From a filamentous cyanobacterium ESFC-1 (GTDB lineage Bacteria; Cyanobacteriota; Cyanobacteriia; Cyanobacteriales; Spirulinaceae), in contig KB904821.1 in assembly GCA_000380225.1 (NCBI GenBank), positions 4,584,938 to 4,648,937 of the forward strand: DNA of 64,000 bases, given 5' to 3'. A program made the translations under genes and the position numbers. The first letter of the stretch is position 1; each line of letters starts with the position of its first letter. The notes under the pieces were generated by a model. The model ran no database searches. It was not told the origin of the DNA and saw nothing but the letters and a program-made list of their open reading frames with translations. Positions 1,626 through 29,844 of this stretch are shown one piece after another.

Positions 1626-3128
1626 CTAATCAATCCAATCTTTGGCGCGTTCGACGGCTTTGCTCCACTGCTCGAAGTTGGCTTGGGCTTGGGCTTGATT
1701 TTCGCCGGGTTTAAAGGTGCGTTCGACTTGGCGCTTGGCGATCAAGTCGTCGTAGTTATCCCAGAAACCCGTGGCGAGTCCGGCTCCGAAAGCTGCGCCT
1801 TGGGCGGTTGCGTCGAGGATTTCGGGGCGCTCGACGGGAATGCCCAGGACATCAGCTTGGAATTGCATGAGGAAGTCGTTGCGAGATGAGCCGCCGTCAA
1901 CTTTTAGGAGGGCGATGGGGGTGTCGCCGTCTTTGTTCATGGCATCGACGACTTCTTTGACTTGGTAGGCGATGGATTCGAGGACAGCCCTCACGATATG
2001 TTCTTTTTTCACGCCCCCGGTAATGCCTTGGAAGGAGCCACGGGCGCTCATATCCCAGTGAGGTGCGCCCAAACCACTCAGGGCGGGGACGAAGTAAACG
2101 CCGTCGGTGTCGGGGACTTGGGTGGCGAGGGCTTCGGTTTCGGCGGCATTGCTAATCATTTGTAAGCCGTCGCGCAACCATTGGATACAGGCCCCAGAGG
2201 TGAACATCGCGCCTTCGAGGGCGTAGTTGGTGGTGTCGGGGGTGGTCCAAGCGACGGTGGAGAGGAGTTGGTTTTGCGATCGCGTGACGTTATTGCCACT
2301 ATAGGCCACGAGGAAACACCCGGTTCCATAGGTGCATTTGAGTAAGCCGGGTTTATTGCATCCATGCGCGAACAAGGCGGCTTGTTGATCCCCGAAGATG
2401 GCGGTAATGGGAATTTCTGCCCCGAATAAGCCGGGGTCGGTTTTGCCAAACATCCCTAAACTGGGTTTAATTTCCGGCATCCAGTTCGGGGGAATTTTAA
2501 ATAATTCTAAAAGATCGCTATCCCATTCGCGATCGCCCAGGTTCATTAACATGGTGCGACTGGCGTTACTATGGTCGGTGGCGTGGACTTCGCCGCCGGT
2601 GAGATGCCACAAAATCCAACTGTCAACGGTTCCGGCTTGAATGTTGTTAAAGTCTACTTCAGGACGGTTTTCCTTGAGCCAATCCCGCAACCATGCTAAC
2701 TTGGTGGCAGAGAAGTAGGCATCTACGACTAAGCCGGTGCGCTCTTGAATGAGTTTGTCTTGGCCGGCGGTGCTGAGTTCGCGGCACAGGGGGGCGGTGC
2801 GGCGGTCTTGCCAAACGATCGCGTTGTGGAGCGATTTCCCGGTGGTTTTGTCCCACAACAAGCAGGTTTCCCGTTGGACGGTTAAGCCAATGGCGGCGAC
2901 TTCGGCGGCAAAGGTGTCGGTTTCTGCGAGGACATCGCTAATGACTTCGCGGGTGTCGCGCCAAATTGCTTCGGGGTCGTGTTCGAGCCAACCGGGATGG
3001 GGATAATATTGAGTTAATTCTTTATAGGCTTGGCCGACGACTTCCCCGTTTTTGTTGAATAGGATCGCTCGATTGCCTGTGGTACCGAGGTCGAGAGCCA
3101 GTATATATTGAGGTGTCGTTTTTTGCAT
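1626..3128 (-). CDS. glpK: Glycerol kinase
   Basis: 500 residues, the usual length for the FGGY family. It phosphorylates glycerol to glycerol-3-phosphate with ATP. The N-terminal phosphate-1 motif LDLGTTGNRAILF is present, with DHSNASRTMLMNL, FGDQQAALFAHG and the C-terminal adenosine-site segment VDGGSSRNDFLMQFQADVL and TAQGAAFGAGLA. The gene is divergent from glpD with a 409-base spacer, so the two genes convert glycerol to dihydroxyacetone phosphate from a shared control region. Identification is firm; related FGGY sugar kinases lack this combination of motifs and this neighbour. Confidence 0.96.
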   Translation of the reverse strand: MQKTTPQYILALDLGTTGNRAILFNKNGEVVGQAYKELTQYYPHPGWLEHDPEAIWRDTREVISDVLAETDTFAAEVAAIGLTVQRETCLLWDKTTGKSLHNAIVWQDRRTAPLCRELSTAGQDKLIQERTGLVVDAYFSATKLAWLRDWLKENRPEVDFNNIQAGTVDSWILWHLTGGEVHATDHSNASRTMLMNLGDREWDSDLLELFKIPPNWMPEIKPSLGMFGKTDPGLFGAEIPITAIFGDQQAALFAHGCNKPGLLKCTYGTGCFLVAYSGNNVTRSQNQLLSTVAWTTPDTTNYALEGAMFTSGACIQWLRDGLQMISNAAETEALATQVPDTDGVYFVPALSGLGAPHWDMSARGSFQGITGGVKKEHIVRAVLESIAYQVKEVVDAMNKDGDTPIALLKVDGGSSRNDFLMQFQADVLGIPVERPEILDATAQGAAFGAGLATGFWDNYDDLIAKRQVERTFKPGENQAQAQANFEQWSKAVERAKDWID

Positions 3129-3537
3129 TAGTCAATCGCTGATTATTTTTTTATAACTTCATTCTTTTTAATTGTCTCGGAATTTTGGGATTTTTTAACA
3201 ACAATTTTAATTAAATTTAACGTAATCTCTATATCGAGATTATATGTTTAGGATGAGAAATTTTAAAGTTCAAAATGAGTTTTGCTGCCCAAATCACGAC
3301 GCGATCGCGTTAGGGGCAAAAGGAAAAAATTGCTAAAAAACTATTAAGAATTAGCATTAAAAACTGCCTTCAATCAACCTTTGGAGAGATGGGAATAGGG
3401 ATAACGGCCGGGAAATTTACCAGACAAGAGAGATTTTGTGCGATCGCGTCTTGAAAAAATTGTGATGAGTGAAAGTCGCCGAATCCGAATCTATTTCTAT
3501 AATGGGGGTGACGCTATGAAACGACGAGATTCAAGTT
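3129..3537. promoter_or_regulatory. glpK-glpD divergent control region
   Basis: A 409-base AT-rich spacer between divergent glpK and glpD. It holds one perfect palindrome (3223-3242), HIP1 sites, and a 10-codon reading frame ATG...TGA at 3516-3545 that overlaps the glpD GTG start in another frame. I see no recognisable riboswitch and cannot place promoters with confidence. Confidence 0.5.
3223..3242. promoter_or_regulatory. Perfect inverted repeat, candidate operator for glpK and glpD
   Basis: Arms TAATCTC (3223-3229) and GAGATTA (3236-3242) are exact inverted copies separated by TATATC. The 20-base symmetric site lies about 95 bases from the glpK start and 300 from the glpD start. Its size fits a dimeric repressor. 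No glycerol regulator gene is next to it, so the binding protein is unknown. Confidence 0.5.
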
Positions 3538-5226
3538 GTGCCTGATTATCAAAAACTACAAAACGAACAATATGACCTGATTGTAATTGGAGGTGGGATT
3601 AACGGTGCAGGCGTTGTGCGAGATGCAGCGTTGCGCGGATTGAAAACCATTTTGCTCGAAAAAGCCGACTTCTGCGGCGGGACGACCAGTTGGTCTACTC
3701 GCTTGATTCACGGGGGTTTGCGCTATTTAGAATACTTTGAATTTTCCTTGGTGCGCGAATCCTTGCGCGAGCGGGAAATTCTGCTGCGGAATGCCCCCCA
3801 CTTGGTCAAACCGCTACTCCTGACCATTCCCATTTACGGCGATCGCTCCCGTCCTTACTGGAAAGTTTGGGCGGGTATGATTTTGTACGATATCTTTAGT
3901 TTCGACAAAACCTTACCCGAACATCGGATGCTGTCGCAAAAGAAATTCCGGCAGTTATTCCGCCATCTCGACCCGGATGACCTTTCGGGGGCGGCGCAAT
4001 ATTACGATGGTCAAGTCGAATATGCCGAGCGTTTGGCTTTAGAAAATATTATGTCGGCAGAAGAAGCCGGCGCAACGGTGATGAATTATGCCGAAGTGAC
4101 CCAACTGCACCGAGAAGGCGATCGCATCACCCATTTAACCTGTAAAAATGCCCTCACGGGGGAAGAATTTACGGTCAACGGCAGCGACCAAGCAGTTTAT
4201 ATTAACACCGCCGGGCCTTGGGTGGATAAAGTCCTACGAGGGGGACGCAAAAACAACCAACCCGCCCCGATCAGCGAAACCCGGAAAATCGGCCCCACTA
4301 AAGGCAGTCACATTATTGTAGACCCCTTCCCCGGTGCGCCGCCGACGAGTTTGTATGTAGAAGCGAAATCAGACGGCAGACCGTTTTTCATTGTGCCTTG
4401 GTTGGGAATGTACCTGATCGGGACAACGGATATTTTCTACGACAGCGACCTGGATAAAATCAAAGCCAGCAACGACGAAATTGATTATCTGTTGCGAGAA
4501 ACCAATTTAGTCATTCCGACGGCGAAGTTGTCGCGGGCTGATGTGAAGTTTACTTATTCTGGGGTGCGACCTCTGCCTTACACGGGCAAAGACAAAGCTG
4601 GCAGCGTGACCCGCAGCCATATTCTGTTTGACCATACTCCCGACGGGGCGAAAAACTTAATTTCCTTGATCGGCGGTAAGATTACCACTTATCGTCAGGT
4701 GGGCGAGGAAATGGTAGAAAAGGCGTATAAGAAGATGAAAAAAGCTGCGCCGAAGTGTAAGACTGAGTATGCGCTGTTACCTGGCGCAATTTTGCCGGAT
4801 GACCCGCGTGTTGACGGGGCGATCGCGGATTACTGCCCCCAAGTGCCTCTGACAACGGTGCATCATTTGTTTGCGATTTATGGGGCAAAAGCTCTGGATA
4901 TCCTGGCTTTGACTGATGATGAGCCAGAATTAGCGGAAATCATAGTTCCCGGTTTACCGGATATCAAAGCGCAAATCGTCTATTCGGTGCAGTCGGAATA
5001 TGCGGTGACGCTGGTAGATATTACTCGCCGTCGCACCAGTATTGCGATGCACGCTAATTACGGCTTTGATGCCCTCGATACGATTACCGATATCCTGAAG
5101 CGCTATTGCGGCTGGACGCAAGGAGATTGCGAGACTCAGATGGAATATTATCGCACCTTTATGCAGGATAATTGCGTCCCCGATTACGCGATCGCTGAGG
5201 TGGCGTTGTCGTCTTCGGTGGAGTAG
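3538..5226 (+). CDS. glpD: Glycerol-3-phosphate dehydrogenase, FAD-dependent
   Basis: 562 residues. It oxidises glycerol-3-phosphate to dihydroxyacetone phosphate at the membrane, passing electrons to quinone. The FAD-binding N-terminus YDLIVIGGGINGAGVVRDAA carries the GxGxxG pattern at about residues 17-22, followed by the family signature FCGGTTSWSTRLIHGGLRYL. Later signatures are GTTDIFYD and the C-terminal LIGGKITTYRQVGEEM. The start is GTG at 3538: the frame closes at a TGA at 3517-3519, and the nearby ATG at 3516 is in another frame and ends at 3545. That out-of-frame peptide may couple translation. It is divergent from glpK. Confidence 0.95.
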   Translation: MPDYQKLQNEQYDLIVIGGGINGAGVVRDAALRGLKTILLEKADFCGGTTSWSTRLIHGGLRYLEYFEFSLVRESLREREILLRNAPHLVKPLLLTIPIYGDRSRPYWKVWAGMILYDIFSFDKTLPEHRMLSQKKFRQLFRHLDPDDLSGAAQYYDGQVEYAERLALENIMSAEEAGATVMNYAEVTQLHREGDRITHLTCKNALTGEEFTVNGSDQAVYINTAGPWVDKVLRGGRKNNQPAPISETRKIGPTKGSHIIVDPFPGAPPTSLYVEAKSDGRPFFIVPWLGMYLIGTTDIFYDSDLDKIKASNDEIDYLLRETNLVIPTAKLSRADVKFTYSGVRPLPYTGKDKAGSVTRSHILFDHTPDGAKNLISLIGGKITTYRQVGEEMVEKAYKKMKKAAPKCKTEYALLPGAILPDDPRVDGAIADYCPQVPLTTVHHLFAIYGAKALDILALTDDEPELAEIIVPGLPDIKAQIVYSVQSEYAVTLVDITRRRTSIAMHANYGFDALDTITDILKRYCGWTQGDCETQMEYYRTFMQDNCVPDYAIAEVALSSSVE

Positions 5227-5236
5227 GTTTGATTGA

Positions 5237-5267
5237 GCAGGTGGGGTTTTTTGACCCTGCCTTTTTT
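5237..5267 (+). terminator. Rho-independent terminator after glpD
   Basis: Stem GCAGG (5237-5241) and CCTGC (5256-5260) with a 14-base loop, followed by C and six T at 5262-5267. It lies 11 bases past the glpD stop. The stem is short, so this is a moderate call. Confidence 0.5.
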
Positions 5268-5268
5268 G

Positions 5269-5470
5269 TTGTTGGTTGTTGGTTGTTGGTTATTGGTTGT
5301 TGGCAGAATCCCCGAATTGGTCATTGGTAATTGGTAATTGCTAATTTCCTCCCCCTCTTCCCCCTCCTCCCCCTCCTCCCCCTCTCCCCACTCTTGGACG
5401 GGGAAACCCCGCCCCTACACGCCCACTGCCCACTGCCTACTGCCCAAGACCCACTCCCCAAAACACAACT
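5269..5470. repeat. Repeat island 1: heptamer arrays and palindrome
   Basis: In order: five copies of TTGTTGG or TTATTGG (5269-5303), a TTGGTAA heptamer run (about 5318-5343), a pyrimidine stretch of CCCTCTT/CCCTCCT type (5348-5390), a palindrome GACGGGGAAACCCCGCCCC (5397-5415), then CCCACTG heptamers. The same modules recur in similar order at 20928-21475, 44346-44490 and 63482-63605. No gene is seen here. Confidence 0.8.
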
Positions 5471-5568
5471 GTTTGCGATCTTCCTAAAAATCGTTATATT
5501 GGGATTAGATCGCAACAGATTGCCTCGATCGGGCGAGTCAAAATTCCAGTAGCATAAATCAAATTCCC

Positions 5569-6222
5569 ATGAATGTGTTTGTGGTGGGCGATGTCCACGG
5601 TTGTCTAAAAACGTTTAAAACGCTTGTCAAGGATCATTGGCAACCGGAAACGGATATTTTGGTGCAACTGGGGGATTTGATTAACCGGGGGAATTTTGTA
5701 GCAGAAACAGTATTATATGTTCAAGAGTTGCAGGACAAATGGCGCGATCGCGTGATTGTGTTGCGGGGTAATCACGAACAAAAATGTATTAATTTTGTAG
5801 AATCGGGGCGCGATCGCGATTGGTCTTGGAAAAGTCGCAAGAAAACCATCGCCAGTTTTCAACGCCAGGGCATGGAGTTGTCGGAGGTGAGTGAATGGTT
5901 GCAGCAGTTACCGTTGGTGTGGGAAACGGATAGTTTATGTCTGACCCATGCGGGGATTGCCCTCACGACGGATAAACCTTTCGATCCGAATAATAAAGAG
6001 GGGGTATTGTGGACGAAAAGCCCCCTGAAAAATATTGGGAAACTGCAAGTGGTGGGTCATACGCCGATGCCGGGGGGGATTCCCCGTTATAATCCCGATG
6101 GTCATGTTTGGTATATCGATACGGGGGTTTTTCTGCGACGGACGCTCACGGGCATTAAATTTGATGAGCAAGGGCAAATCATAGACCGCCGCAGCATTCC
6201 CACCGATCCGCGTGATATCTAG
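5569..6222 (+). CDS. PPP-family metallophosphatase, PrpA/ApaH-like
   Basis: 217 residues, the size of bacterial PPP phosphatases that act on phosphoproteins or dinucleoside polyphosphates. Metal-site motifs are clear: GDVHG (7-11), GDLINRG (35-41) and GNHE (67-70), then LTHAGI and VVGHTPMP with the later histidines. The second motif has Asn where most members have Asp (GDxxDRG); the metal-binding first Asp is kept, so activity is plausible. The substrate cannot be told from sequence. The end overlaps the convergent TetR gene by four bases. The region upstream is a repeat island, so its promoter must lie within about 100 bases. Confidence 0.85.
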   Translation: MNVFVVGDVHGCLKTFKTLVKDHWQPETDILVQLGDLINRGNFVAETVLYVQELQDKWRDRVIVLRGNHEQKCINFVESGRDRDWSWKSRKKTIASFQRQGMELSEVSEWLQQLPLVWETDSLCLTHAGIALTTDKPFDPNNKEGVLWTKSPLKNIGKLQVVGHTPMPGGIPRYNPDGHVWYIDTGVFLRRTLTGIKFDEQGQIIDRRSIPTDPRDI

Positions 6223-6848
6223 GCTTCTGGGGCTAATACGCCGTGAAGAAAGATGTCGGCAATGCCTTCGGCCATTTCTTTCATTTCTTGGTGAGAGGCG
6301 TTGGGATTGATGATGGTTTGGTCGGAAAAGCCCGCGATCGCAAACATTCCTAGGAAGACTTGGGCAACGATTTTGGGGTTGGTGCGGCGATAAATCCCGC
6401 GATCCATGGCAGTTTGGAAGAAGGCTTCAGCCACATCGGTCATTTTGGTAATGACTTCTCCTTGGATGCGATCGCGCAATTCCGGGTGAAATTGGGCTTC
6501 CATAAAGCAAACTCGCATGAGATCGCTGCTTTCGCGCAAGCGAAACATTCGCCGTCGCATGACTTGGGCTACAGCTTTATAACTCCCCATCTCACTTAAT
6601 TCTGTGAGCAAGTCGGTTAAAAGCTCGACCCAACCGTTGGTAGCAACTTCGATGAGGATGGCTTTTTTGTTGGTGAAATGGCGAAATAATGTGCCTTCTG
6701 CCACTCCTGCCGCCGCGGCCAAATCCTTGGTGGTGGTGGCATCATAGCCTTTACGAGCGAATAGTTGCAATGCCGCTTTGAGGATACGAGTGCGAGTGTC
6801 TTCCTCGGTCGCGGTGTCGTCCAGGGAAGGTCGATGAAAAACACGCAT
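6219..6848 (-). CDS. TetR-family transcriptional regulator
   Basis: 209 residues. The N-terminal helix-turn-helix is typical: TRILKAALQLFARKGYDATT, then TKDLAAAAGVAEGTLFRHFTNKKAIL (about residues 19-65). The rest is a helical ligand and dimer domain with no recognised ligand motif. It probably represses its own or a neighbouring gene in response to a small molecule. It is convergent with the phosphatase (4-base overlap), and its own upstream region (6849-7012) precedes it on the minus strand. No efflux pump or enzyme is adjacent, so the target is unknown. Confidence 0.9.
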   Translation of the reverse strand: MRVFHRPSLDDTATEEDTRTRILKAALQLFARKGYDATTTKDLAAAAGVAEGTLFRHFTNKKAILIEVATNGWVELLTDLLTELSEMGSYKAVAQVMRRRMFRLRESSDLMRVCFMEAQFHPELRDRIQGEVITKMTDVAEAFFQTAMDRGIYRRTNPKIVAQVFLGMFAIAGFSDQTIINPNASHQEMKEMAEGIADIFLHGVLAPEA

Positions 6849-7012
6849 AAGACTTGATGGGGATTACTTGCATTTAGCGTATCGTTATTAAGCGGCGATC
6901 GCGGACGTTTGCTACAAAAACTTCACAAAAGTTCGAGTCTCGACTGAATTTTTGATGCAATTGTTTACAAAAAAATTAAGAGGGCGCGATCGCCCTAAGA
7001 TAACATCAAGGA

Positions 7013-7519
7013 CTACATTTCTGGAAATTCGTAGAAAATTGTGCCTTTGGTATGGTGATTTTCAATACTGGCATAGCCTTTTTTCACCATTTCTGTTAAT
7101 TCTGCTTCTACTTCTTCAAAATCTGCCCCAGTATCTAATACGGCTTGGGTTACAGAAATTTGTCCGTCTCGTTTTTGAGCCGCTTTTAAGATTCTTAATC
7201 TTAATGTTTCCGTGGTAGGTTGGGGGGAAGGGGGAATCACTTGGGTTGGGGCAGAAGTGGTAGAATCGATGGGGATTCCCGCCGCCGTCATGCCCATTTT
7301 AAGGCGCAGTTTCATTTCATATTCTTCATTCATATTGGGAATTAAAAACAAGTCGATAAATTGACCGAAGCCGAAGATTCCCCAAGTGAATAACCACAGC
7401 AATCCCGATCCAATTTTACCGTTGTACAGGCGATGTAAGCCCCCTAATCCCATAAAAGCACCAAGCCACAGGGCATAAGAAACGACGAGACGCTCGCTTT
7501 TCATAGCTGATTTGTTCAT
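7013..7519 (-). CDS. TM2-domain membrane protein
   Basis: 168 residues from ATG 7519 (MNKSAMKSERLVVSYALW). The TM2 domain spans about residues 6-55: two membrane segments with the GGLHRLYNGK turn and a WGIFGFGQFIDLFLIP second helix. A soluble C-terminal half follows, beginning about residue 100, with a small winged-helix-like segment (LRLRILKAAQKRDGQISVTQ, then EEVEAELTEMVKKGYASI). TM2 proteins are common small membrane proteins of unknown job. An earlier ATG at 7654 is in frame and has a purine-rich AGAGAAG upstream, but the added 45 residues look unlike a domain, so the shorter start is preferred. Confidence 0.75.
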   Translation of the reverse strand: MNKSAMKSERLVVSYALWLGAFMGLGGLHRLYNGKIGSGLLWLFTWGIFGFGQFIDLFLIPNMNEEYEMKLRLKMGMTAAGIPIDSTTSAPTQVIPPSPQPTTETLRLRILKAAQKRDGQISVTQAVLDTGADFEEVEAELTEMVKKGYASIENHHTKGTIFYEFPEM

Positions 7520-7712
7520 AGTATCTAGTTTTATTGTAGTCTGCTCTCGATCGTCACAGGAGCGTTTTACCCCCGATGGGCTATTTTCGTTGTTGGTGGT
7601 GCGCTGTGACGGGAAGTGTAGTTTCCCTCCTATCTTAACGATTGGGATTGCCATCTTGAGAACTTCTCTTGGGGCTACGCGATCGCGGCGGTCAATTACG
7701 CAAAATTAGGGG

Positions 7713-8735
7713 TTAATTTTTATTATGGCAAGTCGTGAAAGAATTGTTGTCAAAAAGCCGCAATAAGTCGTCTAGCACTAAATTAGCAGCAATTGCCCCT
7801 TCACCGCCAATCCAATATTCAAAATCGACGAAATAGACGCGATCGCACTGCACCGCTTTGAGTTGCTGCCAGAGGGGATTTTGGGTAAACTGACGATACA
7901 GGCGCGATCGCGGATCGCTACGGGCAATAAAAATAATATCCGCATCTGCCCTGGGGATAGTTTCGAGAGAGATTTGTTCTTTGAGGCGATCGCGGTCTTG
8001 CATCGGCGGCGGTTTTAAGCCCACATCCTGCATAATTTGGCGAATATGGGATTGGTTTTCATATAAGCGCACCTGACTCGGCATAAATCGCGCGATCGTG
8101 ACTTGCGGCGATTTTTCACCCATGTTTGCTTGCAGTTGGGCAACTGCGCGATCGTAATCTTGGATAATTCGCTCTACGGCATCCCCTTGATTCAACGCCA
8201 TACCATACCCCCGCAAATTATCCTGCCAGCGTAACGCTAAGGCATCATACAGCACCGTTGGCGCGATTTGAGACAAAATTGGGTAAATGGCGCGATGTTC
8301 CCCCGCATTGCCCAAAATGAGGTCAGGTTTGAGTTGAATAATTTTCTCTAAACTCGGTTGATTCACATCCCCCAAATACTCAATTCCTGCGATTTGTTGA
8401 GGAGAGAGAAACCCCGGAAAATTGCCCACATTTCCCGAAGCCACCCACGGTGCAGCCCCCACGGGTTTCATTCCCACAGCCAAAGCCGTTTCGAGGGCTG
8501 CATTTCCCAAGGTAATCACGCGCTGAGGATGGCTGGGAACAAGGGTTTTTCCCTGGCTATGCTGAATCAGGTGGGCTTGCGTTTCATCCAAGGGTGCAGA
8601 CAGCATAAACGGCTGACAAGCTGTTAAAAAAAGAGCGAAAAAACATAAGAAGCAACGCTTTTTCAAAACGAACTTATAAGGTAGGCATTCCCCACCTTTT
8701 CCCCTCTCAAAAAATAGTACTAACCAAGCAATCAT
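7713..8735 (-). CDS. FecB-type substrate-binding lipoprotein (iron-siderophore or related)
   Basis: 340 residues. A basic stretch and hydrophobic core end in the lipobox LTAC (KKRCFLCFFALFLTACQPF), so it should be exported and lipid-anchored. The mature part has the class III binding-protein layout: HPQRVITLGNAALETALAVG, KPDLILG, a long linking helix, and a second lobe ending in WLIGG-like sequence (EYWIGGEGAIAANLVLDDLL). Such proteins deliver ferric siderophores, haem or cobalamin to an ABC importer. No permease or ATPase gene is next to it, so it is an orphan that must use a transporter encoded elsewhere. A TTG at 8666 would give a more normal signal peptide and is a plausible start. Confidence 0.82.
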   Translation of the reverse strand: MIAWLVLFFERGKGGECLPYKFVLKKRCFLCFFALFLTACQPFMLSAPLDETQAHLIQHSQGKTLVPSHPQRVITLGNAALETALAVGMKPVGAAPWVASGNVGNFPGFLSPQQIAGIEYLGDVNQPSLEKIIQLKPDLILGNAGEHRAIYPILSQIAPTVLYDALALRWQDNLRGYGMALNQGDAVERIIQDYDRAVAQLQANMGEKSPQVTIARFMPSQVRLYENQSHIRQIMQDVGLKPPPMQDRDRLKEQISLETIPRADADIIFIARSDPRSRLYRQFTQNPLWQQLKAVQCDRVYFVDFEYWIGGEGAIAANLVLDDLLRLFDNNSFTTCHNKN

Positions 8736-8849
8736 TATTGCGGAATTGAGACAAAGTACAGAAGCTTACAGCTAGAGATGATAGTATTTTCATTTTAGAG
8801 ATAAACTAGCATTGAGTTTTTTCTCAATAGCATATCTATTTAGAAAATT

Positions 8850-8896
8850 GAGACGGAGCCTCGTTTTTACGTCCCTTTGTAAAACCAAAGAACGAG
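8850..8896. repeat. Dispersed repeat E, copy 1
   Basis: Shared with 35941-35990 and 41288-41336: a GAGGC-like arm, AGCCTC, CGTCCCTT, then an inner palindrome (here TTTGTAAAACCAAAGAACGA). Each copy folds into two small hairpins. It lies upstream of the binding-protein gene. Confidence 0.6.
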
Positions 8897-8933
8897 ATTA
8901 GGTGTTTACATCCGAATTTGTAAATACTATAAA

Positions 8934-9290
8934 ATTGTACATTGTTAATTGTACATTGTTAATTGTACATTGTTAATTGTGCATTGTTAATTGTACATTG
9001 TTGATTGTACATTGTTAATTGTGCATTGTTAATTGTGCATTGTTAATTGTACATTGTTAATTGTGCATTGTTAATTGTACATTGTTAATTGTACATTGTT
9101 AATTGTGCATTGTTAATTGTACATTGTTAATTGTGCATTGTTAATTGTGCATTGTTAATTGTACATTGTTAATTGTACATTGTTAATTGTACATTGTTAA
9201 TTGTACATTGTTAATTGTGCATTGTTAATTGTACATTGTTAATTGTGCATTGTTAATTGTACATTGTTAATTGTACATTGTTAATTGTGC
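8934..9290. repeat. 14-bp tandem repeat made of two heptamers, about 26 copies
   Basis: The unit is ATTGTTA plus ATTGTAC or ATTGTGC. I count about 26 GTRC positions spaced exactly 14 bases apart from 8940 to 9287, 16 with A and 10 with G, in no simple order. One ATTGTTG variant occurs near 9000. The array ends 7 bases before the polA stop codon. Otherwise the 561-base spacer 8736-9296 contains only repeat E and AT-rich sequence. Confidence 0.95.
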
Positions 9291-20863: not shown

Positions 20864-20927
20864 TCTACCTTTTCTCGCAACTACTCCCCTTTACGTCGCG
20901 ATCGCCCGCCCATCGGGATTGGTTACT

Positions 20928-21270
20928 TGGTTGTTGGTTGTTGGTTGTTGGTTGTTGGTTGTTGGTTGTTGGTTGTTGGTTATTGGTTATTGGTTGTTGG
21001 TTGTTGGTTGTTGGTTGTTGGTTGTTGGTTATTGGTTATTGGTTGTTGGTTGTTGGTTGTTGGTTGTTGGTTGTTGGTTGTTGGTTGTTGGTTGTTGGTT
21101 GTTGGTTGTTGGTTGTTGGTTGTTGGTTGTTGGTTGTTGGTTGTTGGTTGTTGGTTATTGGTTATTGGTTGTTGGTTGTTGGTTGTTGGTTGTTGGTTGT
21201 TGGTTATTGGTTATTGGTTATTGGTTATTGGTTGTTGGTTGTTGGTTGTTGGTTATTGGTTGTTGGTTAT
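20928..21270. repeat. TTGTTGG/TTATTGG heptamer array, 49 units
   Basis: 343 bases of strict 7-base periodicity. Units are TTGTTGG except for a minority of TTATTGG units, which often occur in adjacent pairs. Because 7 is not a multiple of 3, all frames read through as a repeated LLVVGCW-type peptide; this is not a gene. It belongs to the heptameric tandem repeats known in cyanobacteria and lies upstream of rpsB. Confidence 0.97.
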
Positions 21271-21593
21271 TCGCCCAAATCCGTCAATTGGTTATTTCCT
21301 CCCACTCTCCCCCCTCTTCCCACTCCTCCCCCTCTCCCCCCTCTTCCCCCTCTTCCTACTGCCTACTTCCTACTGCCCACTGCCCAAAAACCTGCCCACT
21401 GCCCAAAAACCTGCCCACTGCCTAAGACCTACTGCCCAAAACCCTGATGACTGATAACTGATAACTGATGACTGATAAAGTGTTATCCTAGAAAAGTTGT
21501 ATTAACAAACCGCACATTCAGGCATTCGGGTGTTTCTCAAATTGTAGAAATCCAGACCTGGATGGAGGCTAAACCCGATTAGGAGAAAAAAAT
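21271..21593. other. Repeat island 2 tail and rpsB leader
   Basis: After the heptamer array come an AATTGGTTATTTCC block, pyrimidine repeats (21300-21356), CTACTGC/CCCACTG heptamers (to about 21440) and ACTGATA/ACTGATG heptamers (21446-21477). The rpsB leader occupies 21480-21593 and includes the ribosome-binding sequence AGGAG at 21581-21585, 8 bases before the ATG. No gene is seen. Confidence 0.75.
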
Positions 21594-27142: not shown

Positions 27143-29215
27143 TTAGTGAGAAAGCGAGACTTCAATAATTTCTGTATATTCAAATTCATCCTGGCTGCGT
27201 CGGACTAAAGGATAAACGCGATCGCGCAACTGGAGAGAATCTTCTTCGCAATCGGATTTAGGGGAATTATACACCAAGACGTACTCTTTGCCAATAGAAG
27301 GATTAACTTCGTTTTCCACTTCCCCCCGCCATTGGGTTTTCGTGACTAAAATAACCAGTTGATTGGCCAATTCAGGGATGTAGTGGGCGACTTGACGGCG
27401 GTAAATTTCGTCTAGACTGCCAAAAGGGGAGTCCATCACCACGGGAAAGGTGCTGCTGTCGGGGCCCATGAGGGTGTTGCGCTGACTCCACTGACGCACG
27501 CGATCGATAATTCCCCCAATAAACGATAAACTGAGAATTTGATTTTCCCCGGTCGATGCCGCCACGGGGAAGGCAATGCCGGAAGTGTTTTCGACTAAAC
27601 TTAACTCGTAGTCGGTATTTAACCGGGGAATATAGGGGGTAAAGGAAATGGAACTAAAAATTTCTTGTACTCGCATTTCTAGGGAATAGCGAAATTGGGT
27701 TTCGAGGCGATCGCGCACTTCTAAAAGAGTGGCGATCGCGTCTGTGGTGGCTGCAATCCGACGCTGAATTAAAGCTTGTCGATCGGCTCGTTGTTGGTGT
27801 TTTTGAATTTGTTTTTGATTCCCTTCTAGGGCAATTTCGAGTTGGGCAATTTGCTGTTGATTTGCCCCTTGTTCTAAGGTTAAATCGCGAATCGTCACTT
27901 CAAGGCGATCAAGTTGGTGTTGGAGTTGTTGAATATCGGTGTCGGGATAGGTGCGTAACTTTTGCCGCAAATCGTCTAATTGATTTTCGAGACTGGCCAA
28001 ATTTTCCCGTTGTTGCTGTAAACTACTCGATAAGCGATCGCTATTTGACCAAAAATCTGCGAGGCGCTGTTCGATTTCTGCGGCTTGGGTTTCGGTGCGA
28101 ATGACGGCTTCTTCGATATCAGCTAATCCGGCTTTTTCGAGCCATTGTTGCACTTGTTCATAAGTTCCGGTTTCGGGGTGTAACGGTGTGCCACAAATGC
28201 ACAATTGGCGCTGTAATAAGTCTTGGATAAACTGCTTTTTAACGCCACTGGGTAGCGCTCCTTGAGAACGCAAATCAATGACTAATTGCCGGAATTTTGC
28301 GATCAAAGGCGGTGTAAAAACCGTATGAGCGCGACCCGAAATAAGCCGTTTTAGCTCGGATTTGGTCGTGAGTAAGTTGGCGCGATCGCTCACGGCTTGG
28401 GCTTCGAGTTTTTGCTTGAGTTGCTGAAAATCTTTAGCCCCGCCTAAATCAATCATTTGGCGGTCTAAGGCTTGTTTAATCGTTTCTTGCTGGGCGATCG
28501 CGTCTTGGATTTCTTGCTGTCGTTGACCCAGGCGATCGCGTTCTTTTTCCAGTTTACTTTGTTCGCGAATTAGCTTTTGCGTCTGGGTGTCCCCCACATC
28601 TTTTAATTCCAGTTGTAGGGTTTTCTTCGCCTTTTTTAAATGCTCAATCCCCCGGTCTAATACCTTCACCCCTAACAACGCCTTTGTATCTTCAGCAATG
28701 GTACTTTTGCGATTGCTAGAACGGAAAATATGCTCAATTCTTTCCCCATCAAAAAAGAAATATTGATGTAAACTTTCCGGCAGAATCCCTTGAATAATAT
28801 CCGTGGGGTGTTGGGTGGGAACGTGCCATAAACCATCATCCCCCGCCAGTTGCATAAATAACTTAGCTTGGCTGTAGGTAATATGCTTGTGGGGGTCACG
28901 ATGGGCAAAACATTGGCGTTTGAGGCGATAAGTTTTGCCGTCTCGCTCAAAACCTAACTCCACCCAACAAATCACCTCTGTCCCCACCTCTGCTTCGTAA
29001 AGCGCCCGCTTATTAATCAGCATTTCCGGTTCAGCAAAAGCGGCGGTAAACCGTTCGTAGAGTACCCAGGTAAAGCAATTTAAAAGCGTGGTTTTACCCG
29101 CCCCATTATTACCATGAATCACTGTCGTATTACGCGACCCAGAGGCAAAATGAATTTCTGGGGTGATGCCATAAAACTGGCGAAAATTACGCATCCGTAA
29201 AGAAATTAATTTCAT
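27143..29215 (-). CDS. DndD-like SMC ATPase
   Basis: 690 residues. N-terminal ATPase half: LRMRNFRQFYG and Walker A HGNNGAGKTT (34-43), then FFFDGERIEHIF (153-164), a motif typical of DndD. A long coiled coil follows (about 185-560), with a CIC motif at 339-341 in its tip region that recalls the Rad50 zinc hook. The C-terminal half has TGENQILSLSFI and Walker B FPVVMDSPFGSLDE. DndD is the ATPase of DNA phosphorothioation. Here no dndC or dndE lies nearby, so the role may differ. It overlaps a 57-residue gene by four bases, so the two are coupled. It may act in DNA repair or defence. Confidence 0.8.
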   Translation of the reverse strand: MKLISLRMRNFRQFYGITPEIHFASGSRNTTVIHGNNGAGKTTLLNCFTWVLYERFTAAFAEPEMLINKRALYEAEVGTEVICWVELGFERDGKTYRLKRQCFAHRDPHKHITYSQAKLFMQLAGDDGLWHVPTQHPTDIIQGILPESLHQYFFFDGERIEHIFRSSNRKSTIAEDTKALLGVKVLDRGIEHLKKAKKTLQLELKDVGDTQTQKLIREQSKLEKERDRLGQRQQEIQDAIAQQETIKQALDRQMIDLGGAKDFQQLKQKLEAQAVSDRANLLTTKSELKRLISGRAHTVFTPPLIAKFRQLVIDLRSQGALPSGVKKQFIQDLLQRQLCICGTPLHPETGTYEQVQQWLEKAGLADIEEAVIRTETQAAEIEQRLADFWSNSDRLSSSLQQQRENLASLENQLDDLRQKLRTYPDTDIQQLQHQLDRLEVTIRDLTLEQGANQQQIAQLEIALEGNQKQIQKHQQRADRQALIQRRIAATTDAIATLLEVRDRLETQFRYSLEMRVQEIFSSISFTPYIPRLNTDYELSLVENTSGIAFPVAASTGENQILSLSFIGGIIDRVRQWSQRNTLMGPDSSTFPVVMDSPFGSLDEIYRRQVAHYIPELANQLVILVTKTQWRGEVENEVNPSIGKEYVLVYNSPKSDCEEDSLQLRDRVYPLVRRSQDEFEYTEIIEVSLSH

Positions 29216-29385
29216 TGCACCACATTTTTAATAATGGTTAAAATATCATCATTAATGTGGCGGGGATGGCGTTGATAGAGTTTTTCTTTTTCGAGTTGCA
29301 AGACTCGTTCTACAATCGCGCGAACTTCCGGGGAGGCTTGCTGGATCGGTTCTTGAACTTTGTGAATGTCAGGAGAATCAGACAT
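29212..29385 (-). CDS. Small acidic partner of the SMC ATPase, unknown function
   Basis: 57 residues from ATG 29385 (MSDSPDIHKVQEPIQQASPE), ending ILTIIKNVVQ. Mostly helical (EVRAIVERVLQLEKEKLYQR), with a basic HPRH patch. Its stop overlaps the ATPase start (29212-29215, ATGA type), so the two are translationally coupled and probably work together. An in-frame TTG at 29403 would add six hydrophobic residues. I do not recognise the family; it is shorter than DndE and unlike it by eye. Confidence 0.65.
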   Translation of the reverse strand: MSDSPDIHKVQEPIQQASPEVRAIVERVLQLEKEKLYQRHPRHINDDILTIIKNVVQ

Positions 29386-29469: not shown

Positions 29470-29844
29470 CTAAGCAGCTTGAATAGAAACTTTTTCAGTG
29501 GGGTAGCCCATCGCTTTCCAGGCTTCTGCCCCCCCAATCAACTCTGAAACATTCTGATAACCTGCTTCTCGCAGTTGAGTGGCGACAATTGCTGTTTGCT
29601 CGTCAGTTTCGTCGTAAATATAAATATCGCGTGTTAATTCTAATGCCATTAACGACCGATCGATCAACTCTTTTCCCGGAAATGAAATTGCCCCGGTAAT
29701 GCGTTCGCTGTTGTAGTCATTTAAAGGACGAGTATCAATAATCGTCAGTCCAGGTTTTCCCCAGTCTAAACGTCCCTTTAACTCATAGGGTTCCGAACGA
29801 GGCTTGAGTGGAGGAGGTGTAGGAATCCAAGAAAAAATATTCAT
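29470..29844 (-). CDS. Rhodanese-like domain protein lacking the catalytic cysteine
   Basis: 124 residues, one domain. The rhodanese hallmarks are IIDTRPLNDYNSERITGAISF (residues 34-56) and the C-terminal VSELIGGAEAWKAMGYP. The active-site loop, normally with Cys, reads YIYDETDEQT with Asp at about 78, so sulfur transfer by the usual mechanism is not expected. Such proteins are thought to serve as binding or regulatory modules. It is transcribed in the same direction as the SMC pair but lies 84 bases upstream of it, so common transcription is uncertain. Confidence 0.85.
   Translation of the reverse strand: MNIFSWIPTPPPLKPRSEPYELKGRLDWGKPGLTIIDTRPLNDYNSERITGAISFPGKELIDRSLMALELTRDIYIYDETDEQTAIVATQLREAGYQNVSELIGGAEAWKAMGYPTEKVSIQAA

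What the first reader, a model, noticed from the sequence alone, without database searches (positions are those of the whole stretch)
27143..29385. Orphan DndD-like ATPase coupled to a 57-residue protein
Seen: FFFDGE and SMC motifs, a CIC at the coil tip, and a tiny upstream gene overlapping by four bases. Known: DndD normally works with DndC and DndE in phosphorothioation. None of those genes is within the window. Inference: this may be a two-gene SMC system with another job, such as DNA end processing or defence.
Basis: partly seen in the sequence, partly recalled or inferred. Interest (0 to 1): 0.55.

Follow-up and report, generated by a model that had tools for sequence, protein, structure and literature searches.

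The report
Scattered cyanobacterial Dnd–Pbe defence gene pair
The two genes are not an orphan: they look like the pbeB–pbeC core of a sulfur-mark-based antiviral system whose other genes sit tens to thousands of kilobases away on the same cyanobacterial chromosome, and which many cyanobacteria appear to keep or lose as a set even when its genes are scattered.

Summary
The 690-aa protein misses NCBIfam's DndD cut-off (160 vs 246 bits) and falls with PbeC ("CxC") ABC ATPases, with full support and a CxCG hook absent from the seven DndDs compared. The 57-aa protein is PbeB: a cyanobacterial profile finds haloarchaeal PbeB. The same contig carries pbeA, pbeD, a dndB-like gene, dndC, its own dndD, and dndE, in three other places. 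In some other cyanobacteria the genes form one block.

Presence is nearly all-or-none. In 59 genomes (own included) pbeC agrees with pbeA and pbeD in 58 and with dndC and dndE in 56. In 244 phylum genomes pbeC and dndC are both present in 63, both absent in 173, discordant in 8.

Best reading: pbeBC is the ATPase core of the restriction half of a scattered, largely vertically inherited Dnd–Pbe system. PbeA here lacks the PLD domain reported for the tested archaeal system. This argues against a published statement that Cyanobacteria lack phosphorothioate restriction systems (PMC8569181). Antiviral function and DNA sulfur were not tested.

The parts
27143..29215 (-). pbeC: CxC-clade (PbeC) coiled-coil ABC ATPase, 690 aa
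29212..29385 (-). pbeB: 57-aa partner, start codon at 29383..29385, two predicted helices
29212..29215 (-). four-base stop/start overlap pbeB-pbeC; the same overlap in 40 of 47 genomes with pbeC and 64 of 80 named loci
29090..29113 (-). Walker A, residues 35-42 GNNGAGKT
28742..28759 (-). FFFDGE, residues 153-158
28190..28201 (-). CICG hook, residues 339-342, between the long coiled-coil helices; C339, C341, G342 invariant in the 21 PbeC of one alignment (6 phyla or groups) and the 44 cyanobacterial PbeC of another
27539..27556 (-). ABC signature region, residues 554-559 STGENQ (motif name recalled)
27407..27442 (-). Walker B / D-loop, residues 592-603 VVMDSPFGSLDE (motif name recalled)

Best explanation
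The two genes are pbeB and pbeC of a PbeABCD restriction module that works with DNA phosphorothioation by Dnd proteins, with the genes scattered over the chromosome. Shown by sequence: the family of each part, the presence of pbeA, pbeD, dndB-like, dndC, dndD and dndE in the genome, and near all-or-none co-occurrence across Cyanobacteria. Inferred from the published archaeal system (PMC6459918): DndCDE with a cysteine desulfurase sulfur-marks the cell's own DNA. PbeC, a Rad50-like ATPase dimer joined at a CxC hook, scans or clamps DNA with PbeB bound to it, and with the PbeA helicase and PbeD stops replication of unmarked incoming DNA, probably without cutting it. My inference: PbeB is an obligate, co-translated subunit of PbeC, because this is the link that most often survives when everything else disperses. 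Identity as PbeB-PbeC I hold at about 0.93, the mechanism at about 0.7.
For: Tree: 12 PbeC and 7 DndD split with 100/100 support, window inside PbeC; CxCG hook in 12 of 12 PbeC (CMLCG in L. plantarum), 0 of 7 DndD. Gene order helicase-small gene-ATPase-small gene on plasmids of Ruegeria, Natrinema and L. plantarum; Halorhabdus has a transposase after the helicase; Rhizobium has the helicase last; Pseudanabaena has other genes before pbeD. The last gene is annotated as a pbeD-family protein in Ruegeria, Rhizobium and Pseudanabaena, as hypothetical in the other three. Own genome: pbeA 634 bits (cut-off 600), pbeD 195 (74), dndC 710 (290), dndD 682 (246), dndE 134 (72). Contiguous set in relative G026, one block in G044. 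Co-occurrence with pbeC in 59 genomes (both / pbeC only / other only / neither): pbeA 46/1/0/12, pbeD 46/1/0/12, dndC 45/2/1/11, dndE 45/2/1/11; 244 phylum genomes, dndC 63/4/4/173. In 20 of 47 genomes pbeC is unlinked to the other four, yet 18 of the 20 hold all five. PbeB profile finds Natrinema E 4e-10 and Halorhabdus E 1.5e-6 PbeB (E-values for the loci searched). Rad50, Jet and Lamassu ATPases are among the structural matches.
Against: No phosphorothioate or antiviral data for this organism. The genes are in four places, so co-expression is not assured. PbeA lacks the PLD domain reported for the archaeal PbeA that was tested. PbeB was not found beside pbeC in G021 and G049, and Ruegeria's small protein scores only E 0.53 with the profile. 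Eight of 244 genomes hold only one of pbeC and dndC; two of these eight hits are fragments (G040, G103). G014 and G016 have pbeC without a dndE match. dndA was not searched for. PbeD and DndE showed no profile similarity here (probability 1%), so the published view that PbeD is a DndE was not reproduced. Related genomes are not independent: on an RpsB+Tsf tree pbeC needs 8 changes, of which strongly supported branches force only 3, and the sign test there cannot reach 0.05. Structural matches have low TM-scores (0.25-0.43 by query length).
Confidence: 0.85

Rival explanations
1. A free-standing two-gene SMC-like system (PbeB-PbeC) with its own role in DNA end processing or repair, independent of phosphorothioation.
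For: The pair is kept together when the rest disperses; PbeC distances track ribosomal proteins (rho 0.585, 0 of 999 permutations as high); four of 244 genomes have pbeC without dndC.
Against: Presence agrees with pbeA and pbeD in 58 of 59 genomes each and with dndC in 236 of 244. Two of the four pbeC-only genomes are weak cases: G103 is a fragment, and G031 is a draft in which pbeD itself appears on two contigs.
Confidence: 0.08
2. It is the DndD of a split Dnd system.
For: Weak match to the DndD model, 160 bits.
Against: Below the cut-off; a true DndD (682 bits) lies near dndC; the tree separates them with full support.
Confidence: 0.01
3. A decaying remnant of a defence system whose genes have drifted apart and no longer work together.
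For: Scattered genes; single-gene leftovers in other genomes (dndE alone in G003, partial dndC in G040).
Against: Intact reading frames; many motif residues invariant in 44 orthologues; absences mostly hit all five searched genes together, while 18 of 20 genomes with an unlinked pbeC keep all five.
Confidence: 0.05

Closest known systems
DndCDEA-PbeABCD of Haloterrigena jeotgali A29 (PMC6459918, abstract and passages seen)
   Same: Same gene set: pbeA, small pbeB (66 aa there), pbeC ATPase, small pbeD (152 aa there), together with dnd modification genes.
   Different: There one co-transcribed pbe cassette next to dnd; here four places on the chromosome. PbeA there has a PLD domain; here it is 487 aa and helicase only. 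PbeB here is 57 aa. The A29 proteins themselves were not compared here.
CxC-clade ABC-ATPase systems (PMC10853773, abstract and passages seen)
   Same: CxC hook in the coiled coil, short coiled coil, small partner protein.
   Different: That paper calls the CxC ATPase universally linked to a DndE and the small protein rapidly evolving and mostly disordered. Here pbeD lies about 880 kb away, and PbeB is conserved with two predicted helices (best model mean pLDDT 80, the five models 61-80).
Canonical DndD
   Same: ABC ATPase with coiled coil, weakly similar in sequence.
   Different: No CxC hook in the seven compared; near dndC or dndE; the genome has its own.
Rad50/SbcC, Jet and Lamassu ATPases
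   Same: ABC head plus coiled coil.
   Different: Only 10-14% identity in the 50 structural matches listed; Rad50 and SbcC family cut-offs not met.

Membership tests
PbeC / CxC-clade ABC ATPase | CxC hook in the coiled coil | tested here: met
   C339, C341, G342 invariant
PbeC / CxC-clade ABC ATPase | Groups with PbeC, apart from DndD | tested here: met
   100/100 support, 12 vs 7 rows; rows were labelled PbeC by their gene neighbours; two long branches in the PbeC group, one flagged as meeting the DndD branch
PbeC / CxC-clade ABC ATPase | Small protein gene upstream | tested here: met
   four-base overlap in the window; upstream on the same strand in 45 of 47 genomes and 79 of 80 named loci
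PbeC / CxC-clade ABC ATPase | Adjacent DndE/PbeD gene (called universal in PMC10853773) | tested here: not met
   pbeD about 880 kb away in this genome; within 20 kb in 14 of 46. This is a gene-order feature; the gene itself is present
Dnd-PbeABCD system | All of pbeA, pbeB, pbeC, pbeD in the genome | tested here: met
Dnd-PbeABCD system | dndC, dndD, dndE modification genes in the genome | tested here: met
Dnd-PbeABCD system | DndA cysteine desulfurase | not tested
   no search made
Dnd-PbeABCD system | PLD domain on PbeA, as in the tested archaeal system | tested here: not met
   only helicase-type domains found; PADLOC PbeA models match from position 216-255 on
Dnd-PbeABCD system | Phosphorothioate in DNA; virus block dependent on it | not testable with these tools
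   needs mass spectrometry and infection tests
DndD (TIGR03185) | Score over the curated cut-off | tested here: not met
   160.2 vs 245.85 bits
DndD (TIGR03185) | Linkage to dndC and dndE | tested here: not met
   nearest is dndE, about 49 kb away
Rad50/SbcC | Score over curated cut-offs | tested here: not met
Chromosomal SMC | Score over curated cut-offs | tested here: not met

The most novel reading that the evidence does not exclude
In Cyanobacteria the Dnd-Pbe phosphorothioate system behaves as a dispersed, largely vertically inherited unit rather than a mobile defence island: its genes scatter over the chromosome but are kept or lost together, with a helicase-only PbeA. It may be an old lineage-wide DNA self-marking and surveillance system whose first role is not limited to phage defence, and many 'solitary' pbe genes in databases would be unlinked parts of complete systems.
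Probability: 0.4. Interest if true: 0.7.

Novelty: new variant of a known kind. Interest (0 to 1): 0.52.

Why it matters
A 2021 survey states that phosphorothioate restriction systems are absent in Cyanobacteria and uses this for an antioxidant-origin argument (PMC8569181, passages; the passages name dndFGH, and no word there begins with 'pbe'). The Pbe partner is present in near lock-step with dndC here, so that premise needs revision. The 2019 paper left 320 of 553 pbeAC without dndCD within 10 kb, 'solitary' (PMC6459918); scattered genomes such as this one would be counted that way, so at least some 'solitary' cases may be complete. Defence finders that require neighbouring genes could also miss such systems (inference). 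Retention without linkage is itself evidence that these genes work together.

Tried and rejected
DndD identity: rejected. PADLOC labels alone are not decisive, because its PbeC set also scores the true DndD highly (935 bits); hook, tree and gene set were used instead. PADLOC gave no match for the own PbeD, the window PbeB, or three other PbeB. Search of solved structures by sequence: no match at E 0.001. A link to the upstream rhodanese-like gene was considered and rejected: in the held flanks of 128 loci it was found only in the window's own. The ribosomal S21 gene was found in 9 of 128, own included. PbeD-DndE homology was not detected with 8 and 7 sequences. DndF: the model I recall as DndF/DptF (TIGR03238) gave no match over its cut-off in the genome (13.6 vs 50 bits); DndG and DndH models were not run. 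The first small-gene scan did not orient the loci and was replaced. A regex for C.C returned nothing for the window protein because, as I read it, the file held a gapped alignment row; one search is the valid test. The independent-pairs test had too few supported pairs (3) to reach significance. The first tree attempt failed on thread number.

Counts: the 59 genomes include the window's own. 'Unlinked' includes genes on different contigs of draft genomes, which inflates it; the cleaner set is the 12 genomes of at most 6 contigs with pbeC, in which pbeC is alone in 9 and all five genes are apart in 8 (for G024 I count the interrupted pbeA pieces). In one search G024's interrupted pbeA was counted as present; G039 has no RpsB match, so the tree has 58 genomes. 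Some genomes of the 59 are also among the 244. Distance correlations used 31 PbeA and 30 PbeD sequences out of 46 each, and 44 genomes for the ribosomal comparison. The PbeB profile was built from 36 pattern-found sequences, so hits to those are by construction. The 80 named loci are the best of 548 confirmed; one is titled Gracilibacteria (L149). One search looked at 77 of the 80; at all 80.

Literature: searches. PbeABCD with cyanobacteria: one paper in the listing, a general review (PMC12707154), not opened. PMC6459918, PMC10853773 and PMC8569181 were seen as abstract and passages, not in full; supplements were not available, so a mention there is possible. In the 2019 main text no word begins with 'cyano', though it names Hydrococcus rivularis, a cyanobacterium, as holding a PbeC-like 'SMC' protein; in the 2024 main text 'cyano' does not occur.

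Full report
What is there. On the minus strand, a 57-aa gene (29212..29385) overlaps by four bases a 690-aa gene (27143..29215). The large protein has a P-loop, FFFDGE, an ABC signature, a Walker B/D-loop and CICG at residues 339-342. AlphaFold2 gives an ABC-type head with long helical arms and the CICG region between them (best model mean pLDDT 84, pTM 0.58). Rad50, Jet, SMC-type, MukB and Lamassu ATPases are the structural matches listed, with low TM-scores and 10-14% identity.

Not DndD. The NCBIfam DndD model gives 160.2 bits against a cut-off of 245.85; the best PADLOC model is a PbeC model, 989 bits. PADLOC's PbeC set is mixed, since the genome's true DndD also scores 935 bits with a PbeC model, so the label was tested independently. 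In a tree of 19 proteins, 12 PbeC (window included; labelled by their gene neighbours) and 7 DndD separate with 100/100 support; the L. plantarum and Rhizobium PbeC rows are long branches and the program warns about the former. The CxCG hook is in all 12 PbeC (with one extra residue in L. plantarum) and in none of the 7 DndD.

What the pair is. On plasmids of Ruegeria, Natrinema and L. plantarum the ATPase relative sits directly behind a small gene and a restriction-helicase gene and before another small gene. Halorhabdus differs by a transposase between helicase and small gene, Rhizobium has the helicase last, and a Pseudanabaena plasmid has the pbeD-family gene about 1.6 kb further downstream. 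That last gene is annotated 'DNA phosphorothioation-associated protein 4' (the pbeD family) in Ruegeria, Rhizobium and Pseudanabaena, and hypothetical in the other three, where I assign it by position and alignment. This is the pbeA-pbeB-pbeC-pbeD layout of PMC6459918 (abstract and passages). A profile of the cyanobacterial small proteins finds the haloarchaeal ones (Natrinema 3.8e-10, Halorhabdus 1.5e-6) and, weakly, the one of a second cluster in G006 (3.5e-4); Ruegeria's scores only 0.53. The small protein is predicted as two helices, 19-35 and 44-56.

The rest is elsewhere in the genome, all on contig C1. pbeA at 2536283-2537746; pbeD (3731475-3731942), a DndB-family gene, dndC, a gene I recall as GAF-like, and dndD together at about 3.725-3.732 Mb; dndE at 4562703-4563119; the window pair at 4612080-4614322 (coordinates of whole ORFs computed from locus offsets). 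The DndB-like protein passes Pfam DndB (250.6 bits) but not NCBIfam DndB (98.5 vs 328). The DndF model gives nothing over its cut-off. dndA was not searched for.

Linked elsewhere, kept together nearly everywhere. Relative G026 has pbeA, pbeB, pbeC, pbeD, dndC, dndD, dndE in one run on one strand, with three other genes between; G044 has one block. In 59 genomes, own included, pbeC agrees with pbeA in 58, pbeD in 58, dndC in 56, dndE in 56. The pbeA exception, G024, has pbeA in two pieces around an open frame and a group II intron match; the pbeD exception, G039, is 75% complete. In 244 phylum genomes (completeness filter 90%), pbeC and dndC are both present in 63, both absent in 173, pbeC only in 4, dndC only in 4. 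Yet linkage is loose: pbeC is within 20 kb of pbeA in 25 of 46, of pbeD in 14 of 46, of dndC in 11 of 45, of dndE in 8 of 45. Phylum-wide pbeC-dndC is within 20 kb in 33 of 63, and in 14 genomes they lie on one contig 282-2534 kb apart. Against this, pbeB stays upstream of pbeC on the same strand in 45 of 47 and 79 of 80.

History. pbeC changes state at least 8 times on an RpsB+Tsf tree, at least 3 forced by strongly supported branches; in those 3 pairs the other genes nearly always go the same way, too few for significance. PbeC distances follow ribosomal distances (rho 0.585, 0 of 999 permutations as high, 44 genomes) and PbeA distances (rho 0.609, 31 genomes), consistent with mainly vertical inheritance.

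Mechanism. Shown: families, gene set, co-occurrence. Published for the archaeal system: sulfur-marking plus PbeABCD blocks viral replication without visible cutting, and each pbe gene is needed, pbeA only partly (PMC6459918). Inferred: PbeC with PbeB clamps or scans DNA and PbeA's helicase acts with it on unmarked DNA. All 46 over-cut-off PbeA of the 59 genomes have open frames of 457-551 aa, against 668-730 aa for the five lower-scoring long forms listed. In the own PbeA only helicase-type domains are found, so a PLD nuclease in PbeA is unlikely here.

Verdict. Observation right, 'orphan' wrong. The pair is a known kind in an unusual, scattered arrangement, and the co-occurrence argues against the statement that Cyanobacteria lack phosphorothioate restriction systems (PMC8569181, passages).

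Noticed in passing
L106 (G024:C1:3097500-3105000), about 2906-5546: pbeA is interrupted by a stretch holding a 609-aa frame that I recall as typical of group II intron reverse transcriptases, with a group II intron match (RF00029) just before the second pbeA piece.
   Followed up: partly
L107 (G006:C576), 4304-9195: A second pbe cluster with a long 717-aa pbeA, pbeB, pbeC (29% identical to the window) and pbeD, in a genome that also has the usual set.
   Followed up: partly
window 29470-29844: Rhodanese-like gene (recalled) just upstream of pbeB on the same strand; seems to lack the usual active-site Cys motif (recalled). Not found in the held flanks of the other 127 of 128 loci.
   Followed up: yes
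L101 7651-8148: A 165-aa gene, recalled as GAF-like (weak bacteriophytochrome match), lies between dndC and dndD in the own genome; role unknown.
   Followed up: no
L269 3822-3956: On a Nonomuraea plasmid a 44-aa gene overlaps an annotated dndD by four bases, followed by dndE: a small upstream partner may not be limited to PbeC.
   Followed up: no
window 20919-21454: Long repeat open in three frames of the + strand (GCWLLVV-type translation), with a similar stretch near dndE in L103.
   Followed up: no
G021 and G049 (L127, L126): pbeC present but no pbeB found within the flank held; whether pbeB moved or diverged is unknown.
   Followed up: no
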